Source: an uncultured Saprospiraceae bacterium
GTDB taxonomy: Bacteria; Bacteroidota; Bacteroidia; Chitinophagales; Saprospiraceae
Direction: 5' to 3'
DNA length: 64,000 nt
NCBI GenBank assembly: GCA_937997635.1
Contig: CALLFA010000057.1
Span: 1 to 64,000 of the forward strand
Position 1 is the first letter of the stretch; the number at the start of each line of letters is the position of its first letter. Shown one piece after another: positions 4,863-60,880 of the stretch. Position numbers and translations under genes: made by a program. The notes under the pieces are model-generated. The model made no database searches. It was not told the DNA's origin and saw nothing but the letters and a program-made list of their open reading frames with translations.

Positions 4863-5779
4863 TATCTAATATTTTCTTTTTGATGAATCATCAAGTTATA
4901 GGTATACACGTGGCTTAAATCCTTGTGGTTGTCAATAGACATAATCGTTGCTAATGCATCTGCAATGTAGCACTTATCTGCGATTACTGTCACTTCGCGG
5001 GGATTGACAATACCCCAACCATTGCGAGGATCAATAATATGGGAATATGATGTTTCATCAATTGTTACGTGTCTAAATACAGAGCCAGATGTTGCCACAG
5101 CTTTAAAATCATCTAACTCTAGTAATTCATCACCGACAGCAATCCTCCATTTTGATTGTGTAGGAGATTTACCTACAAAGATATCACCACCACCATCAAC
5201 TATGGCAGTTTCAATTCCGAAACCACGCAACACTTGGAATGCCTCATCGACGGCATACCCTTTAGCAATCCCTCCCAAATCAAGTCGCATATTTTCTTTT
5301 AACAATTGAATGGTATTGGTTTGTTTATGTATGACGATATCATCTGTTTGACAATGTGAAAGCAATCGGTCAATCGTTGTAGCTTCTGGTAATTCTTGCC
5401 TTCGAATAGCTCTTCTCCATAGCTTTGTCAATGGACCTGACGCAATAGAAAACAAACCATCTGATTGTTCATTTATTTTTTTAGATGTCACTAATAAAAA
5501 ACGGAGATCGTTTGACAATTGGATTGGCATATCGTAAGCTGACGCACTAATGTGGTTCAACTCACTGTCTAATCGATAGTCACTACAAATAGAATCTAAC
5601 TCTGCTATTCGTGAGAATGCTTGTTGACTTGCTAGATGTGCCATAGAATCAGAAGAGTGATATATCGTCATTTGAAACAGTGTGCCCATGTGAACCTCCT
5701 CAAACTGATACTTTCTCAAGTCTTGCGCAGCAACAGCTATGACAAGCACACTACATATACATGATAATAAAACTCTCAT
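4862..5779 (-). CDS. apbE: FAD:protein FMN transferase (ApbE family)
   Basis: ApbE attaches FMN covalently to Thr of exported flavoproteins. The chosen start gives 305 residues and overlaps the upstream stop as ATGA; it begins MRVLLSCICSVLVIAVAAQ, a good signal peptide. An in-frame ATG 21 bp upstream is less likely. Family motifs are RLDLGGIAKGYAVD, VDGGGDIFVG and SYSHIIDPRNG (metal and FAD binding). It lies in an operon between a SUMF-like lipoprotein and a sugar dehydrogenase-like lipoprotein. No obvious flavinylation substrate is encoded beside it. Confidence 0.9.
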   Translation of the reverse strand: MRVLLSCICSVLVIAVAAQDLRKYQFEEVHMGTLFQMTIYHSSDSMAHLASQQAFSRIAELDSICSDYRLDSELNHISASAYDMPIQLSNDLRFLLVTSKKINEQSDGLFSIASGPLTKLWRRAIRRQELPEATTIDRLLSHCQTDDIVIHKQTNTIQLLKENMRLDLGGIAKGYAVDEAFQVLRGFGIETAIVDGGGDIFVGKSPTQSKWRIAVGDELLELDDFKAVATSGSVFRHVTIDETSYSHIIDPRNGWGIVNPREVTVIADKCYIADALATIMSIDNHKDLSHVYTYNLMIHQKENIR

Positions 5780-6762
5780 CCTCCTAATACCATTTCCCAA
5801 AATGCGGCCTGTTCTTCAGGGCTAGGTGGATTGACAGGCTTGACCATTCTAAAGCCAACAAAAGGCGAGTCTGTATTCCACCAAAAACTTTTAGGAATTT
5901 GAGGATCTCTTTCTTTCCATTTACGGCTTGATTCAATTCGGCAACTGCATCTGGATTTTGATTTGTCATCGTCCCATGAACCACCTCTTACTGTACGAGG
6001 ATGTAGGCTTGTTGGCTTTATCCATGGGGTGGGTTCTGTAGATGCAGCAAGAGTAGCATACGCATCATCAACATATTGATCCATGGTCCATTCTGATACG
6101 TTACCTAGCATGTCATATATCCCCCAAGGATTGGCTGCTTTAGTTCCTATCTTTTGGTACTTTTCTCCGCTGTTGTCATAATGCCAAGCATAGTTGTCTA
6201 AGTCGGCTTGATAGTCTATTTTGCCATCAGCTTTGCAGGCGTATTCCCACTCAATCTCAGTGGGCAATCGATAAAATTCACCAGTCTTATCACTCAACCA
6301 TTTGCAATATTGCAGTGCTGCTAGTTGCGTCATACTGACGGCAGGGTAATCATTTTCGCCCATACCAAAGGTCGGATCTTCGTAAGGCGGACTAGGTCTA
6401 GATATAGCGTCAGCATCCCAATCTGGCAATGATTCTGGCACAAGATCTAAATCCTTTTTTCTGAAAATTTTATACTCATCGAAAGTCACTTCATGTGTAC
6501 CAATCCAAAGACTCGCAACATCAGCAGTAAAACTTGGACCTTCATTTTCTGCCAATGAACTTCCCATGGTCACAGTTCCTTCAGGTAATAAAGTCATTGA
6601 ATAACTAACTTCAGTACCAGGCACATTGAATAGTTTATGTTTTGGCTGAAATACCTCTTTCGTCAATTCCTCATTCTTAGCTAGTTGTTTACTTGAGTTA
6701 CATGAGTAACAAACCATCAGTATGATTACCAATAGAGCAACGATATTCCAATTCTGTTTCAT
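5776..6762 (-). CDS. SUMF/formylglycine-generating-enzyme-fold lipoprotein
   Basis: Starting at 6762 the protein has 328 residues and a clean lipoprotein signal (MKQNWNIVALLVIILMVCYSC); a longer in-frame start at 6828 is less convincing. The SUMF fold is shown by PEGTVTMGS, GTHEVTFDEY, YPAVSMTQLAALQYCKWLS, YRLPTEIEWEYACKAD, GIYDMLGNVSEWT, TVRGGSWDDD and a final VGFRM. The catalytic Cys pair of true FGE (C then C five residues on, after RGGS) is not in register: Asp occupies the first position. It is more likely a non-catalytic or different SUMF paralogue. It heads the operon with apbE. Confidence 0.85.
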   Translation of the reverse strand: MKQNWNIVALLVIILMVCYSCNSSKQLAKNEELTKEVFQPKHKLFNVPGTEVSYSMTLLPEGTVTMGSSLAENEGPSFTADVASLWIGTHEVTFDEYKIFRKKDLDLVPESLPDWDADAISRPSPPYEDPTFGMGENDYPAVSMTQLAALQYCKWLSDKTGEFYRLPTEIEWEYACKADGKIDYQADLDNYAWHYDNSGEKYQKIGTKAANPWGIYDMLGNVSEWTMDQYVDDAYATLAASTEPTPWIKPTSLHPRTVRGGSWDDDKSKSRCSCRIESSRKWKERDPQIPKSFWWNTDSPFVGFRMVKPVNPPSPEEQAAFWEMVLGG

Positions 6763-6968
6763 CAAAAACGTTTTATAAAATCTAAGATAATGGATTGTTT
6801 GTATAAAATAGACTACTCTTGATTTCATCGTTATGCTAAAAATTGAAGTACTTTGTCCCCAACTGTCTTTAATAATAATTTGATTTGGTGGTAATTGATT
6901 GAGAGTATTATATTTTCGTTTGCGCGGATGATCCGAACAATTCTATTTGTCAGTTAAGCAATCGTTTT

Positions 6969-24456: not shown

Positions 24457-27312
24457 TTATTTAGTGCTTCTCAAACGACCAAGCTCAGGCAATAGTATCG
24501 TCCCCCTATCCATGATGTATCTTTTCATCGCGCCTTTAACTTCAATCTCTTTTACTCTTAGTCGTCTGCCTCGGGTCAACACTTCAAAGCCATCTCCGCC
24601 TCTTGCGACAAAAGAAGTGGTGGCAAACGTGTATGACTTCTTGTCTTCAATGGCTTCCCCGTCAACAGAAGCTTTAATCATCCGATTTCCTACGGACCTG
24701 GTCAGATCGTATTCAACAGTCAACCCAGAAAATTGCATCATACCGTAATTGAGGCTTAAACTATATTCAATCGCTTCTTTCAATTGTAATCCTGTCAATT
24801 CGATCATCTCAATATTGTCTAGGAATGGATAGATGTTTACAATCTCTTCTACCGTAATCGGCCCGACATCTAGATCGGCTCTTATGGCTCCTGGATTTAT
24901 CATTGCTATTTTTGCGCCAGAAGCTGATCTTAAAATATCAGCAATAAAATTTCCTAAATTAGATTCCTTGTAATACTTGCGAAAGCCTGTACTTGTATTT
25001 TGTCCAATAACTTTGGTCAATTCAGGATTGTCATGTCTGACTTGTTCAATTCTCTTACTGATTTCTTTATCTGGGCTTAGCTGCTCTGTCTTCACTGGCA
25101 CCAATCTTCCAGACATCAGCTCTACGCCACCTTCTGCTTTTAAGCGTAAAACCATCTCTCCAATTTGTTTGCCTTGGCCAAAAGTGATGCCGATGATTGT
25201 TCCTGTTTGTGGATGAACGACTGGCGACCAGAGCCCATTGTCGGAATGCCCGCCCAATATCACATCAAGTCCGTTTACAGCTCCAGCCATAGCATAATCT
25301 TCATCAAAGCCCCTCTGTACATCTGGGTCAACTTCTTTATCGGATTGCATTGGTGCACTTTTATTTTGATGCGTGAGTGCTACAATCATATCCACATGCG
25401 GACGGAGATCATCTACCAGTTGTTGAACAATTGGAATGGGATCTCTGACTTCCAAACCTTTGCGTGCTCCTTTATAAATCGTATTGTAAAAGGCTTCCTC
25501 TCCCATGGAGCCGATGACACCGATTCTTATGCCATTTTTCTCCACGATAGTGTATGGCTTTGCAAATCTGATGTCCGTGCCTTCATAATATATATTGGCA
25601 TTGAGGACTGGAAATCTAGCATGATCAATCCCTTTAAGTAGTTGCTGACAACCATATTCAAATTCGTGATTGCCGATAGCAATGGCATCATAACCGATAT
25701 CGCTGTACACCTCAAAAGGGAGCAGTCCTAGTGTCGCTTTGGATAGCGCACCTGTGAAAATATCACCTGCATCAAATTTGAACGGATTGACAGCTTTATG
25801 TTCTAGCTCTTTCATTAATGTGGCTAAATATGGTATGCCTCCTATATGCGTCAGACTGTCTATCCAATAAGCATCAATTGGGTCGTAGACGCTTTCTATG
25901 TCATTCGTATAGAGGAGAGTCACAATCCGTTCTTCATCACTTTGAGGATTTATGGGATCGTTTGCTATTTCTGTAATTTTTTTCTTGATAAAAGAGCTTA
26001 ATTCTTTCATGATTTCAGGTTGGTTTTTGGATAAGTCTCTAACTTCACTGGGATCAGCCGAAAGGTTATAGAGTAAAAATGTCTCCGTATCGGGGTTGGC
26101 GATGAGTTTCCAATCTCCTTGACGAGCTGCATAATTGTATCCATTGGGGTCATCGTATTCTCGCGTATGAAACGCCCAAAACAAAGGTTCTTCTCTTGAG
26201 AGAGGTTCTTCTTTCCAAGTTGGACTAATGTCTATACCATCAATTTCATTTTCAACAAAATCGTCCAATTGAATCTGCTTGCTAATGGTAGGCAAGATAT
26301 CGTAAGCAATCACAGGTTCATGACTAACAGTCTGAGGGTTTATGTTCCCAGGATATTTGATGATGAATGGCACTCGTATTCCTCCGTCAAACAAATCAGC
26401 TTTCCGACCGCGTAAACCACCTGTATCTCCATACAAATTGACTTCATACCAATACCGCCACTGGTCAGTCACTGGTCCATTATCACTCATGAATATAACT
26501 ATGGTATTTTCTTCTAGATGTTGCTCTTTGAGATAATTCAATACTTTGCCAATTTGATCGTCCATGTATTCCACATTAGCATAATATTCTCCAGGCCCTC
26601 GATCGTATAAACTATCCAGATCTATTTGTCCCGCCGTGTATTCAGCGTATCGATCCGTAAACGATTCGGGACTTGCGATTTCAGAATGCGGTTCTGCCAT
26701 TGACAGATAGAGAAAAAATGGTTTCTCCTTATCCCTTTCATCAAGATAAGCTATAGCTTGATCTGCAAATATATCTGCCGTGTATCCCTTCAAGTTTGTT
26801 AAATGCTTACCATCTTGAAAGACATTATTTGGATCCTTATGATTAGGAAGTGCATAAGCATGTAGTGATGTCCAGCGATCAAATCCATGGTCAGATGGCT
26901 GTGGATGATCGGTATCGTCCAATGCGCCATTCAAATGCCACTTCCCACTGAGAAATGTTTGATATCCGTTATCTTTTAAAAGAGAGGCAATTGTTTGTTC
27001 TTCTTTATGGAGATATATTTCCTTGCCTATAGGAATCCAACTTTTGATGCCAGTGCGATATGGCGTACGACCAGTCAATAAAGCAGCTCTTGACGGAGAG
27101 CATAAAGGAGAGGCACTATACGCTTGGGTATAAGAAATTCCATCTTTGGCCAATTGATCTAAGTATGGCGTCGATATAATCTCATGACCGTAACATCCTA
27201 AATCACCATAGCCTAGGTCATCGGCTAAGATCAAGACGACATTGGGTTGGGCTTGACTATTGCAACTTAATAAAGAAAGGCTTGTGAGAATGGCTATCCA
27301 AATGTACTTCAT
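24457..27312 (-). CDS. Sulfatase :: 5'-nucleotidase (UshA-like) fusion lipoprotein
   Basis: This single 951-residue ORF has a lipoprotein-type signal (LSLLSC, Cys17). Residues ~22-460 are an arylsulfatase A-like domain: VVLILADDLGYGDLGCYG, the formylglycine motif LCSPSRAALLTG, SGKWHL and MSDNGP. Residues ~470-945 are a 5'-nucleotidase-type metallophosphatase plus its C-terminal domain: LYTNDIESVYDP, FDAGDIFTG, AIGNHEFEYG, ALTHQNKS, ILGGHSDNG and FVARGGDGF. Metal-site variants are NDIE for NDxH and GGHSD for GGHSH. It may release both sulfate and phosphate from periplasmic substrates. The fusion is unusual; a cysteine-type sulfatase needs FGE or anSME from elsewhere. Confidence 0.88.
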   Translation of the reverse strand: MKYIWIAILTSLSLLSCNSQAQPNVVLILADDLGYGDLGCYGHEIISTPYLDQLAKDGISYTQAYSASPLCSPSRAALLTGRTPYRTGIKSWIPIGKEIYLHKEEQTIASLLKDNGYQTFLSGKWHLNGALDDTDHPQPSDHGFDRWTSLHAYALPNHKDPNNVFQDGKHLTNLKGYTADIFADQAIAYLDERDKEKPFFLYLSMAEPHSEIASPESFTDRYAEYTAGQIDLDSLYDRGPGEYYANVEYMDDQIGKVLNYLKEQHLEENTIVIFMSDNGPVTDQWRYWYEVNLYGDTGGLRGRKADLFDGGIRVPFIIKYPGNINPQTVSHEPVIAYDILPTISKQIQLDDFVENEIDGIDISPTWKEEPLSREEPLFWAFHTREYDDPNGYNYAARQGDWKLIANPDTETFLLYNLSADPSEVRDLSKNQPEIMKELSSFIKKKITEIANDPINPQSDEERIVTLLYTNDIESVYDPIDAYWIDSLTHIGGIPYLATLMKELEHKAVNPFKFDAGDIFTGALSKATLGLLPFEVYSDIGYDAIAIGNHEFEYGCQQLLKGIDHARFPVLNANIYYEGTDIRFAKPYTIVEKNGIRIGVIGSMGEEAFYNTIYKGARKGLEVRDPIPIVQQLVDDLRPHVDMIVALTHQNKSAPMQSDKEVDPDVQRGFDEDYAMAGAVNGLDVILGGHSDNGLWSPVVHPQTGTIIGITFGQGKQIGEMVLRLKAEGGVELMSGRLVPVKTEQLSPDKEISKRIEQVRHDNPELTKVIGQNTSTGFRKYYKESNLGNFIADILRSASGAKIAMINPGAIRADLDVGPITVEEIVNIYPFLDNIEMIELTGLQLKEAIEYSLSLNYGMMQFSGLTVEYDLTRSVGNRMIKASVDGEAIEDKKSYTFATTSFVARGGDGFEVLTRGRRLRVKEIEVKGAMKRYIMDRGTILLPELGRLRSTK

Positions 27313-58718: not shown

Positions 58719-59025
58719 CGCCATCCCAAAAGCGAGGTTACGAGCGTCCTAACGAGCGAGGCCACGAACGACTCAACAAGTGAGCCCGCGAACGACCCAA
58801 CAAGGGAGCCCGCGAACGACCCAACAAGTGAGCCCGCGAACGACCCAACAAGTGAGCCTGCGAACACCCCAACAAGTGAGCCTGCGAACGACCCAACAAG
58901 TGAACCTGCGAACACCCCAACAAGCGAGCCTGCAAACACCCCAACAAGCGAGCCTGCGAACACCCCAACAAGTGAGCCTGCGAACACCCTAACAAGTGAG
59001 CCTGCGAACACCCCAATAAGCGCCC
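58717..59025. repeat. 24-bp minisatellite array A (about 12-13 units)
   Basis: Eleven full 24-bp units from 58741 (core CGAACGACCCAACAAGTGAG plus CCTG/CCCG) are flanked by degenerate partial units. The first begins at the DMT transporter stop and the last ends 10 bp before the yigZ -7 element. The unit is related to array C after coaE. Long open frames on both strands here reflect the multiple-of-three period. Confidence 0.92.
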
Positions 59026-59714: not shown

Positions 59715-60298
59715 TAACAATAGGCATTACGGGTGGAATTGGAAGTGGCAAAACAACGTGCTGTAAACTGTTTGAAGAATTGGGCACTCCTGTGTATTAC
59801 GCAGACACAAGAGCAAAGCAATTGATGATAAGCAACAAACCATTAAAAACACAGATCAAAGCTTTGCTAGGAGATGACGCTTATCATACAAATGGTAGGC
59901 CCAACAGACCGTACATCGCATCCAAAATATTTAACGATAAGCAGCTTCTAAAAAAGATGAATGGCCTAGTCCACCCTGCAGTCGGAATGGATGTTATCGG
60001 ATGGGCTCAAGTGCAACAGTCACCCTACGTTATGTATGAAGCTGCCTTATTGGTAGAAAATGGTTCGTACAAAAACTTCAACAAATTAATCGTCGTGACA
60101 TGTCCAAAAGATGAACGGATCAAACGCGTCATGAAAAGAGACAATATCTCCAAAGAAGCTGTTCTTGCAAGAATGAAAAACCAATTACCTGAAAAGAAAA
60201 AAGTGGCTGTTGCAGATTTCATTATTGATAATAGTGGGAATCAAAAATTGGATGTTCAAATTAGGCGCATACATAAAGAGATAATTTCGGGCGGCTAG
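59711..60298 (+). CDS. coaE: Dephospho-CoA kinase
   Basis: This 195-residue P-loop kinase catalyses the last step of CoA synthesis. It has ITIGITGGIGSGKTTCCKLF (Walker A), YYADTRAKQLM, LVHPAVGMDV, YEAALLVENGSYKNF and VTCPKDERIKRVMKRD. The 3' end of the gene (GGGCGGCTAGTGCC, including the stop) resembles the unit of the minisatellite that follows at once. Confidence 0.96.
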   Translation: MITIGITGGIGSGKTTCCKLFEELGTPVYYADTRAKQLMISNKPLKTQIKALLGDDAYHTNGRPNRPYIASKIFNDKQLLKKMNGLVHPAVGMDVIGWAQVQQSPYVMYEAALLVENGSYKNFNKLIVVTCPKDERIKRVMKRDNISKEAVLARMKNQLPEKKKVAVADFIIDNSGNQKLDVQIRRIHKEIISGG

Positions 60299-60490
60299 TG
60301 CCTTTCTGGGGCGGCTGCGCCTTGTTGGGTCGGCTGACGCCTTATTGGGTCGGCTGGCGCCTTGTTGGGTCGGCTGGCGCCTTGTTGGGTCGGCTGGCGC
60401 CTTGTTGGGTCGGCTGGCGCCTTGTTGGGTCGGCTGGCGCCTCGTTGGGGCGGCTGGCGCCTCTTTGGGGCGGCTGGCGCCTCGTTGGCT
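60288..60490. repeat. 20-bp minisatellite array B after coaE
   Basis: About nine units of CTTGTTGGGTCGGCTGGCGC follow, with a degenerate first unit that overlaps the coaE stop codon (GGGCGGCTAGTGCCTTTCTG). Internal units at 60361-60440 are identical. Each unit contains the palindrome GGCGCC. The CTTGTTGGG core is the reverse complement of the CCCAACAAG core in arrays A and C. Confidence 0.92.
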
Positions 60491-60520
60491 TACTGATCAG
60501 TCTCAAACGAGCTGTTAGTA

Positions 60521-60880
60521 AACCAACAAGCGAGGTCACGAGCGCCCCAACAAGCGAGGTCACGAGCGCCCCAACAAGCGAGGTCACGAGCGCCCCAACA
60601 AGCGAGCCTGCGAGCACCCCAACAAGCGAGGTCACGAGCGCCCCAACAAGCGAGGTCACGAGCGCCCCAACAAACGAGGTCACGAGCGCCCCAACAAACG
60701 AGGTCACGAGCGCCCCAACAAACGAGGTCACGAGCGCCCCAACAAGCGAGGTCACGAGCGCCCCAACAAGCGAGGCCACGAGCGCCCCAACAAGCGAGGC
60801 CACGAGCGCCCCAACAAGCGAGGTCACGAGCGCCCCAACAAGCGAGGCCACGAGCGCCCCAACAGCGAGCCTGCGAGCGT
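60521..60880. repeat. 24-bp minisatellite array C (about 15 units)
   Basis: About 15 units of 24 bp with core AGCGCCCCAACAAGCGAGGT follow array B after a 40-bp unique stretch. Variants are GGTCACGA, GGCCACGA and GCCTGCGA. It shares the CCCAACAAG core with array A, in the same orientation, and is inverted relative to array B. No gene is credible between 60299 and 60970. Confidence 0.92.

What the first reader, a model, noticed from the sequence alone, without database searches (positions are those of the whole stretch)
24457..27312. Single 951-residue sulfatase::5'-nucleotidase fusion
An arylsulfatase with a Cys-type formylglycine motif is joined in one frame to a complete UshA-like nucleotidase. 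The nucleotidase half has altered metal ligands (NDIE and GGHSD). A bifunctional surface enzyme could take both sulfate and phosphate from one substrate, such as a sulfated, phosphorylated glycan or PAP-like nucleotide.
Basis: partly seen in the sequence, partly recalled or inferred. Interest (0 to 1): 0.6.

Follow-up and report, generated by a model that had tools for sequence, protein, structure and literature searches.

The report
Fused sulfatase and 5'-nucleotidase enzyme
One bacterial protein joins a sulfate-removing enzyme to a nucleotide-dephosphorylating enzyme; the joined form recurs in related bacteria and its second half belongs to a subfamily with an unusual metal site, so it is a real two-enzyme protein whose substrate is still unknown.

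Summary
The ORF is real: 951 codons at 24457-27312, on the MINUS strand. It joins end to end a formylglycine-type sulfatase (catalytic motifs kept) and a UshA-like nucleotidase. Not an artefact: of 398 genomes of the same family, 8 encode the fusion (6 open through both halves, one of these without its start at a contig end; one frame-broken; one cut by contig ends), and a ninth has a degenerate copy. The closest separate sulfatases lie beside nucleotidase genes in two more genomes. The altered metal ligands are not decay: they mark a conserved nucleotidase subfamily, stand-alone in Vibrionaceae and others, in which four active-site positions changed together (UshA H43 to E, Q254 to D, D120 to E, N431 to D). 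The fusion is rare: 0 of 394 other Bacteroidota sampled. I read it as an exported two-site scavenging hydrolase. Linkage supports a partnership, but nothing shows that both halves act on one molecule. New domain architecture from known enzyme kinds; not found in the papers searched.

The parts
24457..27312 (-). 951-residue sulfatase::5'-nucleotidase fusion gene
27262..27312 (-). N-terminal signal, residues 1-17, ending in a lipobox-like LLS-C
   Evidence: sequence, read by eye; no predictor run
26278..27246 (-). sulfatase domain (PF00884), residues 23-345; motifs D31 D32, C71, R75, K124, H126, H209, D277 N278, K304
   Evidence: residue roles from PMC4014121 Table 2
27100..27102 (-). codon of Cys71, the residue to be converted to formylglycine (CSPSR)
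25966..26394 (-). sulfatase C-terminal part (SGSH_C, PF16347), residues 307-449
25927..25965 (-). junction, residues 450-462: continues the C-terminal tail of separate sulfatases (SI..DP.RP) and runs straight into the start of the mature nucleotidase
25243..25848 (-). calcineurin-like metallophosphoesterase domain (PF00149), Pfam residues 489-690; motif NDIE 470-473 lies just upstream of the Pfam match; DAGD 514-517, GNHEFE 547-552, THQNK 647-651
25894..25896 (-). codon of Glu473, in place of metal-ligand His43 of UshA
25240..25242 (-). codon of Asp691, in place of metal-ligand Gln254 of UshA (His in most relatives)
24574..24981 (-). 5_nucleotid_C substrate-binding domain (PF02872), residues 778-913

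Best explanation
A genuine exported bifunctional hydrolase produced by end-to-end gene fusion. Its first half is a formylglycine-dependent sulfatase (Cys71 converted by the genome's aerobic FGE) that removes sulfate from an as yet unknown sulfate ester. Its second half is a two-metal 5'-nucleotidase that clamps a nucleoside between its two domains and releases phosphate. In the second half one of the two metals sits in an all-carboxylate pocket (Asp, Glu, bridging Asp, Asp) instead of a His-containing one, and the catalytic His is paired with Glu instead of Asp; this probably changes metal choice and, with Asp for the base-contacting Asn, base preference. The halves are kept together because they work as partners in nutrient scavenging in the same compartment. 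Shown: architecture, conservation, intact active-site motifs, physical linkage in three arrangements (fused, divergent neighbours, tandem neighbours). Inferred: export, both activities, metal and base preference. Open: whether one molecule is the substrate of both (the first two rivals below are the two ways of closing this and are not exclusive with this statement).
For: Fused at the same junction in 8 of 398 family genomes, 6 of them open through both halves. All 11 places that score above 460 bits with the sulfatase half in those 398 genomes are tied to a nucleotidase: 8 fused, 1 degenerate fusion (G209 = L023), and 2 neighbours (G045 divergent; G190 tandem, 58 bases between stop and start). 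Sulfatase: 370 bits to arylsulfatase 3ed4; the ten catalytic positions listed in PMC4014121 have the O-sulfatase residues. FGE with its Cys pair in the genome. Nucleotidase: 284 bits to 3ivd/3ive; modelled half superposes on 3ive with Z 45.0, rmsd 2.5 over 482 residues. R410, F429, F/Y498 and D504 (UshA numbers) kept in every resolved row.
Against: No activity is known for either half. In 10 of 13 gammaproteobacterial genomes/records with the stand-alone nucleotidase no close sulfatase was found. G038 and G153 hold both on different contigs (for G038 both contigs are under 8.3 kb, so linkage is not excluded), and G139 only the nucleotidase. UshA R375 and R379 are not kept, though the c4898-like proteins lack them too. 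UshA is already assayed with Mg, Mn, Co or Ca (PMC8071527 passage), so a preference for such metals would not by itself set this subfamily apart. The sulfatase half of the model is poor, and the model is weak (pLDDT under 50) exactly at 651-666 and 691-693, which includes Asp691. Two other genomes of the genus lack the gene.
Confidence: 0.6

Rival explanations
1. The two halves act one after the other on the same molecule, a sulfated nucleotide or nucleotide-linked compound (adenylyl sulfate, PAPS-like, sulfated nucleotide sugar, sulfated nucleoside phosphate): the sulfatase frees sulfate, the nucleotidase then frees phosphate.
For: Repeated linkage of one sulfatase group to nucleotidases in fused, divergent and tandem form, once with a canonical NDIH/GHAH nucleotidase (G190), which suggests that the partnership is with nucleotidase function and not with one particular protein. 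Nucleoside-binding residues mostly kept.
Against: No substrate evidence; nucleotidase often found without the sulfatase; solved sulfatase relatives are named as carbohydrate, steryl and aryl sulfatases.
Confidence: 0.2
2. The two halves act on unrelated substrates; fusion merely secures joint export and equal amounts under sulfur- or phosphorus-scavenging conditions.
For: Copies on different contigs in G038 and G153; stand-alone nucleotidase in Gammaproteobacteria; neighbours of the fused gene mostly differ between genera, although one neighbour recurs in G343 and G292 and one in G196 and G244.
Against: Linkage exists in several arrangements, whereas none of the 13 other sulfatase-like places of the window's own genome lies on the contig of its only other 5_nucleotid_C gene.
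Confidence: 0.4
3. The nucleotidase half is no longer a 5'-nucleotidase: with its changed metal site it hydrolyses another phosphate (or sulfur) ester.
For: Four coordinated active-site changes in every resolved family member; a long conserved stretch THQNK.APMQ..KE.D..QRGFDEDY.MA; only 2 of 47 fully resolved relatives sampled share the E/E/D triple and both are members; the fold also fits SoxB (Z 35.7, 19% identity).
Against: Remaining ligands, catalytic His and nucleoside-stacking aromatics kept; SoxB model only 119.5 of 550 cut-off bits.
Confidence: 0.25
4. The FGly half is a phosphodiesterase/phosphonate monoester hydrolase (SulfAtlas S1_0 type) that makes nucleoside monophosphates for the nucleotidase.
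For: Would give a simple diesterase-to-nucleotidase cascade; a PF01663 match of 33.4 bits, above its cut-off of 23 (but 229 bits for Sulfatase), and a PehA match of 78 bits (cut-off 900).
Against: PMH has Tyr105/Thr107 and Asp-His where sulfatases have Lys/His and Asp-Asn (PMC4014121 Table 2); this protein has K124, H126 and D277-N278, the sulfatase pattern.
Confidence: 0.08
5. Assembly, frameshift or sequencing artefact.
For: Window genome is a 252-contig assembly of 89% completeness.
Against: Same fusion point in independent assemblies with 57-61% identity of the sulfatase half.
Confidence: 0.01

Closest known systems
Arylsulfatase of PDB 3ed4 (FGly-type S1 sulfatase; E. coli origin recalled)
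   Same: Match of residues 19-460, 370 bits, the best of 121 PDB sequences matched; same motif set.
   Different: Separate protein, Ser instead of Cys at the formylglycine position (also in the E. coli relative L076). The E. coli relative in CP054241 has no nucleotidase among its annotated neighbours (that table is incomplete). On the tree the E. coli row falls in a supported clade with Vibrio, Glaciecola and G193 rows (100/100).
E. coli c4898 nucleotidase, PDB 3ivd/3ive (uridine and cytidine complexes), and UshA, CD73
   Same: PF00149 plus PF02872 order, fold (Z 45.0 to 3ive), nucleoside-stacking aromatics and Arg410 kept.
   Different: H43 to E, Q254/H to D, D120 to E, N431 to D; fused to a sulfatase.
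Stand-alone NDIE nucleotidases of Vibrio, Photobacterium, Psychromonas, Endozoicomonas, Thaumasiovibrio, Glaciecola
   Same: Same subfamily: 49-52% identity for the 12 aligned and the same four substitutions.
   Different: No sulfatase domain; close sulfatase elsewhere in only 3 of 13 genomes/records.
Natural UshA-CpdB gene fusions (mentioned in PMC10454023)
   Same: Two hydrolases of one extracellular scavenging route in one chain.
   Different: Partner there is a second nucleotidase, not a sulfatase. Seen only as a passage.

Membership tests
FGly-dependent sulfatase (S1, PF00884) | Pfam Sulfatase domain over cut-off | tested here: met
   229.2 bits against 25
FGly-dependent sulfatase (S1, PF00884) | C/S-x-P/A-x-R motif with convertible Cys | tested here: met
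   C71-S-P-S-R; C in all 8 fused rows and both paired sulfatases; the degenerate ninth copy has Tyr
FGly-dependent sulfatase (S1, PF00884) | Metal, FGly- and sulfate-binding residues D, D, D, N, R, K, H, H, K | tested here: met
   D31 D32 D277 N278 R75 K124 H126 H209 K304 against the table in PMC4014121; matched by motif and by the 3ed4 alignment, not by superposition
FGly-dependent sulfatase (S1, PF00884) | A maturation enzyme in the genome | tested here: met
   One of four FGE-domain proteins, G000:C24, has GGSFLCNDSYC..YRVAAR (importance of the Cys pair recalled); anaerobic maturase model TIGR03942 gave no match
FGly-dependent sulfatase (S1, PF00884) | Formylglycine actually formed; sulfatase activity | not testable with these tools
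   needs mass spectrometry and assay
Phosphonate monoester hydrolase/phosphodiesterase (S1_0) | Tyr/Thr in place of Lys/His near FGly, His in place of Asn at the metal | tested here: not met
   K124/H126, D277-N278
UshA-like two-domain 5'-nucleotidase (PF00149 + PF02872) | Both domains over cut-off, in order | tested here: met
   27.2 against 21.5 and 135.1 against 23.6 bits
UshA-like two-domain 5'-nucleotidase (PF00149 + PF02872) | Canonical ligands of both metals (Asp, His, bridging Asp, His/Gln; Asn, His, His) | tested here: not met
   Second set kept; first set is D, E, D, D (ligand roles from an AlphaFold 3 model described in PMC11708047)
UshA-like two-domain 5'-nucleotidase (PF00149 + PF02872) | Fold | tested here: met
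   Z 45.0, rmsd 2.5, 482 residues with 3ive; Z 35.9 with UshA 1ho5; model confident over most of 461-951 but under pLDDT 50 at 651-666 and 691-693
UshA-like two-domain 5'-nucleotidase (PF00149 + PF02872) | 5'-nucleotidase activity | not testable with these tools
   needs assay
Thiosulfohydrolase SoxB | NCBIfam TIGR04486 cut-off | tested here: not met
   119.5 of 550 bits

The most novel reading that the evidence does not exclude
A dedicated sulfonucleotide (or sulfated nucleotide-sugar) hydrolase: one exported chain that strips sulfate and then phosphate from the same nucleotide, using a carboxylate-rich two-metal centre tuned for that product, which would be an extracellular route for salvaging sulfated nucleotides.
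Probability: 0.15. Interest if true: 0.78.

Novelty: new variant of a known kind. Interest (0 to 1): 0.5.

Why it matters
Gene fusion is evidence that two activities are used together. If the partnership is real it points to a substrate class that sulfatase and nucleotidase catalogues do not cover, and it offers a single protein in which the question can be tested. Separately, the NDIE subfamily is a clean natural experiment in how a His-containing phosphoesterase metal site can be rebuilt from carboxylates.

Tried and rejected
Reading-frame artefact: rejected by homologues. Adjacency of the E. coli counterparts: the c4898-like nucleotidase of strain KE47 lies between metF and a hypothetical gene next to metL, with no sulfatase within the 13 kb read; the sulfatase relative in CP054241 has no annotated nucleotidase nearby (incomplete annotation; the record has no annotation there and was not examined further). 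SoxB-like function: bit score far under cut-off. PMH/phosphodiesterase: residues wrong. A common partner gene downstream of the gammaproteobacterial nucleotidase: a conserved 460-590 residue gene without Pfam match in Vibrio-type loci, TauE in Endozoicomonas, others in L022; no hint of function. A motif count by regular expression failed for most loci and was replaced by a profile alignment. The structure model of the sulfatase half is poor and was not used.

Number of fusion events: unresolved; both trees need two changes for 'fused', 6-7% of bootstrap trees give one, and starred branches do not exclude one. Rows left out: partial or broken L010, L011, L067, L026 from the nucleotidase tree, L024 never entered it; L058, L003, L004 missed by my pattern in the sulfatase tree. 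Co-occurrence test outside fused genomes: 3 of 4 genomes with and 3 of 385 without a separate NDIE nucleotidase hold a sulfatase at E <= 1e-95, p 8e-6, but this is weak because the hits in G038, G153, G030 and G193 are distant (45-48% identity) and sulfatase-rich genomes are favoured; G209 was counted as a (degenerate) fusion and left out. A search of 188 phylum genomes with the G190 nucleotidase found only the window gene at E <= 1e-70. In some searches only the best 3 candidates of a genome were scored, the best 4, so weaker second copies can be missed.

Literature: three searches on this architecture returned no paper, three broader ones gave listings in which I saw none on it (all 8, 15 of 147 seen, both); one phrase search for adenosine phosphosulfate sulfohydrolase returned none.
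Full report
What is there. The reading frame at 24457-27312 is on the minus strand, starts with ATG and runs 951 codons to a stop. Pfam finds Sulfatase (residues 23-345), SGSH_C (307-449), Metallophos (489-690) and 5_nucleotid_C (778-913), all above cut-off. The first 17 residues read like a lipoprotein signal ending in Cys17 (by eye). The genes around it are housekeeping by my reading of the translations: an acetyltransferase and the his operon upstream, a deacetylase-like gene and priA downstream. The genome is a 5.36 Mb assembly in 252 contigs, 89% complete.

Is the fusion real. A scan of genome contigs gave the same fusion in named Saprospiraceae and Lewinella MAGs (L009, L010, L011) and a degenerate copy in a Bacteroidetes genome, AG-470-E04 (L023). 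Among 398 genomes of the window's family the NDIE-type nucleotidase was found in 12 at E <= 1e-60, with a 13th, canonical, hit in G190. Eight carry it fused. G000, G196, G218, G262 and G343 are complete open frames; G292 is open through both halves but its start is cut off by the contig end (open frames 947-976 codons stop to stop; 954 for the window); G014 has a frame break inside the nucleotidase; G244 is cut by contig ends. The one TAA that one search reports in the G343 match is the gene's own stop, which the match overruns by two codons. G139, G038 and G153 have the nucleotidase as a separate gene with open frames of 526-530 codons, and G045 has it separate as well. The other fused proteins are 57-61% identical to the window protein in the sulfatase half and, for the five open through both halves, 58-60% in the nucleotidase half, too far apart for a shared assembly error. 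The junction is neat. The two separate sulfatases nearest to it end in ...SIENDPLRPKDVGSPNKF and ...SIAEDPIRPR. The fused ones read ...SI..D..RP (NP in the window), about six to nine residues more, and then the first strand of the mature nucleotidase.

Linkage beyond the fusion. In the same 398 genomes all 11 places that match the sulfatase half with more than 460 bits are tied to a nucleotidase: the 8 fusions; the degenerate G209 copy; G045, where the sulfatase and an NDIE nucleotidase start back to back on opposite strands at a contig end (I infer that the nucleotidase piece at the start of another contig is its remainder); and G190, where a canonical NDIH/GHAH nucleotidase gene is followed by the sulfatase gene on the same strand, with 58 bases between stop and start. 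The next hits, G038 (446 bits), G193, G153 and G030 (324-371 bits), show no nucleotidase in the stretches read, some of which end at contig ends. None of the 13 other sulfatase-like places of the window's own genome lies on contig C7, which carries the genome's only other 5_nucleotid_C gene. On the sulfatase tree the window row, the other seven fused rows, the two paired genes and G038 stay in one unresolved fork, whereas the E. coli, Vibrio, Glaciecola and G193 rows form a separate clade (100/100). The trees leave open whether fusion happened once (with later separation) or twice.

Rarity. Neither half has a close relative in 394 other Bacteroidota sampled (395 with the window genome; nucleotidase at E <= 1e-60; sulfatase at E <= 1e-105), and two other genomes of the same genus lack it. 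The stand-alone nucleotidase is found in Vibrio, Photobacterium, Psychromonas, Endozoicomonas, Thaumasiovibrio, Enterovibrio, Glaciecola, an unnamed gammaproteobacterium and, as a fragment, a Halobacteriovoraceae MAG. Of 15 such loci in hand I searched the genomes or records of 13: a sulfatase with E below 1e-100 is present in 3, and at the looser 1e-40 in 4 (one of the 13 was a single replicon). None was seen in the flanks of up to 5 kb by motif search. So the nucleotidase has a life of its own.

Active sites. Sulfatase: D31, D32, C71, R75, K124, H126, H209, D277, N278 and K304 fit the O-sulfatase columns of the table in PMC4014121 (table passage read); where the phosphonate monoester hydrolase differs (Tyr/Thr, Asp-His) this protein has the sulfatase residues. 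The genome has four FGE-domain proteins, one with the GGSFLC...YC..YR.AAR signature (signature recalled), and no anaerobic maturase match. Nucleotidase: aligned with E. coli UshA, every resolved NDIE row has E for H43 (23 of 23), E for D120 (23 of 23), D for Q254 (25 of 25) and D for N431 (24 of 24), while D41, D84, N116, H117, H217, H252, R410, F429, F/Y498 and D504 are kept wherever resolved; R375 and R379 of UshA are not kept, but the E. coli c4898-like, Salmonella and G190 proteins lack them too, while having H, D, H and N at the four changed places (UshA ligand numbers recalled). PMC11708047 (passages read) describes, in an AlphaFold 3 model of a yeast relative, Asp55, His57, bridging Asp101 and His271 on one metal and Asp101, Asn135, His238 and His269 on the other, Phe456/Phe548 stacking the base and an Asn contacting it. 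So the two His ligands of one metal are the ones replaced by carboxylates. In 58 loci, the best hits of the 5_nucleotid_C family from 100 family and 99 phylum genomes, position 43 was resolved in 49 with the window left out: His 44, Glu 4, Tyr 1. The E/E/D triple occurred in 2 of 47 fully resolved rows, both members of this subfamily; Glu at 120 alone is less rare (6 further rows with His at 43). The other two Glu-43 cases (L114, L126) are long proteins with NNDGES and GGGDE, a precedent for carboxylates at this site in another family.

Structure. The AlphaFold2 model has mean pLDDT 68, good for most of 461-951 but under 50 at 651-666 and 691-693 (Asp691 included), and poor for the sulfatase half, which had only four sequences. 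Its nucleotidase half superposes on c4898 of E. coli (3ive, Z 45.0, rmsd 2.5, 482 residues), on CD73 closed forms (Z about 40), on UshA (1ho5, Z 35.9) and on SoxB (2wdc, Z 35.7).

How it most likely works. The protein is exported (signal read by eye); FGE converts Cys71 (inferred). The sulfatase half removes sulfate by the FGly mechanism. The nucleotidase half binds a nucleoside phosphate between its two domains and hydrolyses the phosphate with two metals, one held by N/H/H plus the bridging Asp and one by D/E/D/D. Four carboxylates favour a harder or differently sized cation than Zn (inference); UshA itself is assayed with Mg, Mn, Co or Ca (PMC8071527 passage) and CD73 prefers Zn (PMC11708047 passage), so the test must be a comparison. 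Asp in place of the base-contacting Asn would suit a base that offers two hydrogen-bond donors, such as guanine (inference from general knowledge). The fusion and the two unfused pairs argue that the two activities are used together; the separate and stand-alone cases argue that this is useful rather than essential. Whether one molecule passes through both sites is undecided.

Compared with what is known. Each half is a new member of a known kind. The combination is a domain architecture that I did not find in print (no paper; none seen in the listings; in the SulfAtlas paper PMC5066984 'modular' and 'fused' do not occur and the two places with 'nucleotid' are not about this, passages only; in PMC10454023 on ushA-like genes the word sulfatase does not occur). 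The nucleotidase half shares fold, domain order and most substrate residues with UshA/CD73 but fails the canonical ligand set, so it is filed as a distinct subfamily of that superfamily and not as a proven 5'-nucleotidase.

Verdict. Observation confirmed; interpretation partly supported. Real, conserved, rare, functionally suggestive, biochemically untested.

Noticed in passing
L013-L021, L024, downstream of the nucleotidase gene (e.g. L013:6496-7974): A conserved same-strand gene of about 460-590 residues with zinc-ribbon-like Cys pairs (NGCKTYGC.NCG, WHC.LCGAYPP) follows the stand-alone NDIE nucleotidase in Vibrio-type genomes (read in 8 loci); the five scanned had no Pfam match.
   Followed up: partly
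window 58725-59022 and 60292-60869: Arrays of 24-base and 20-base tandem repeats between genes, open in several frames on both strands, so the ORFs of repeated GVFAGSLV or TSAPTSEV are probably not genes.
   Followed up: partly
window 5776-6828 (-): Protein with the FGE-sulfatase domain but without the Cys pair of a true FGE; the likely true FGE of this genome is at G000:C24 (L071).
   Followed up: yes
L023 / L055 (G209), 5169-6298 in L023: Degenerate fused gene, nearest in identity (65% in the best segment) to the window gene, with several stops and frame breaks and Tyr at the formylglycine position.
   Followed up: partly
G000:C7:23802-25180 and many loci: In many Bacteroidota the 5'-nucleotidase is split into two neighbouring genes, a C-terminal-domain gene and a metallophosphoesterase gene of about 260 and 310 residues.
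   Followed up: no
L114, L126: Long proteins with an NNDGES...GGGDE metallophosphoesterase motif, another family that has replaced metal-ligand His by Glu.
   Followed up: no
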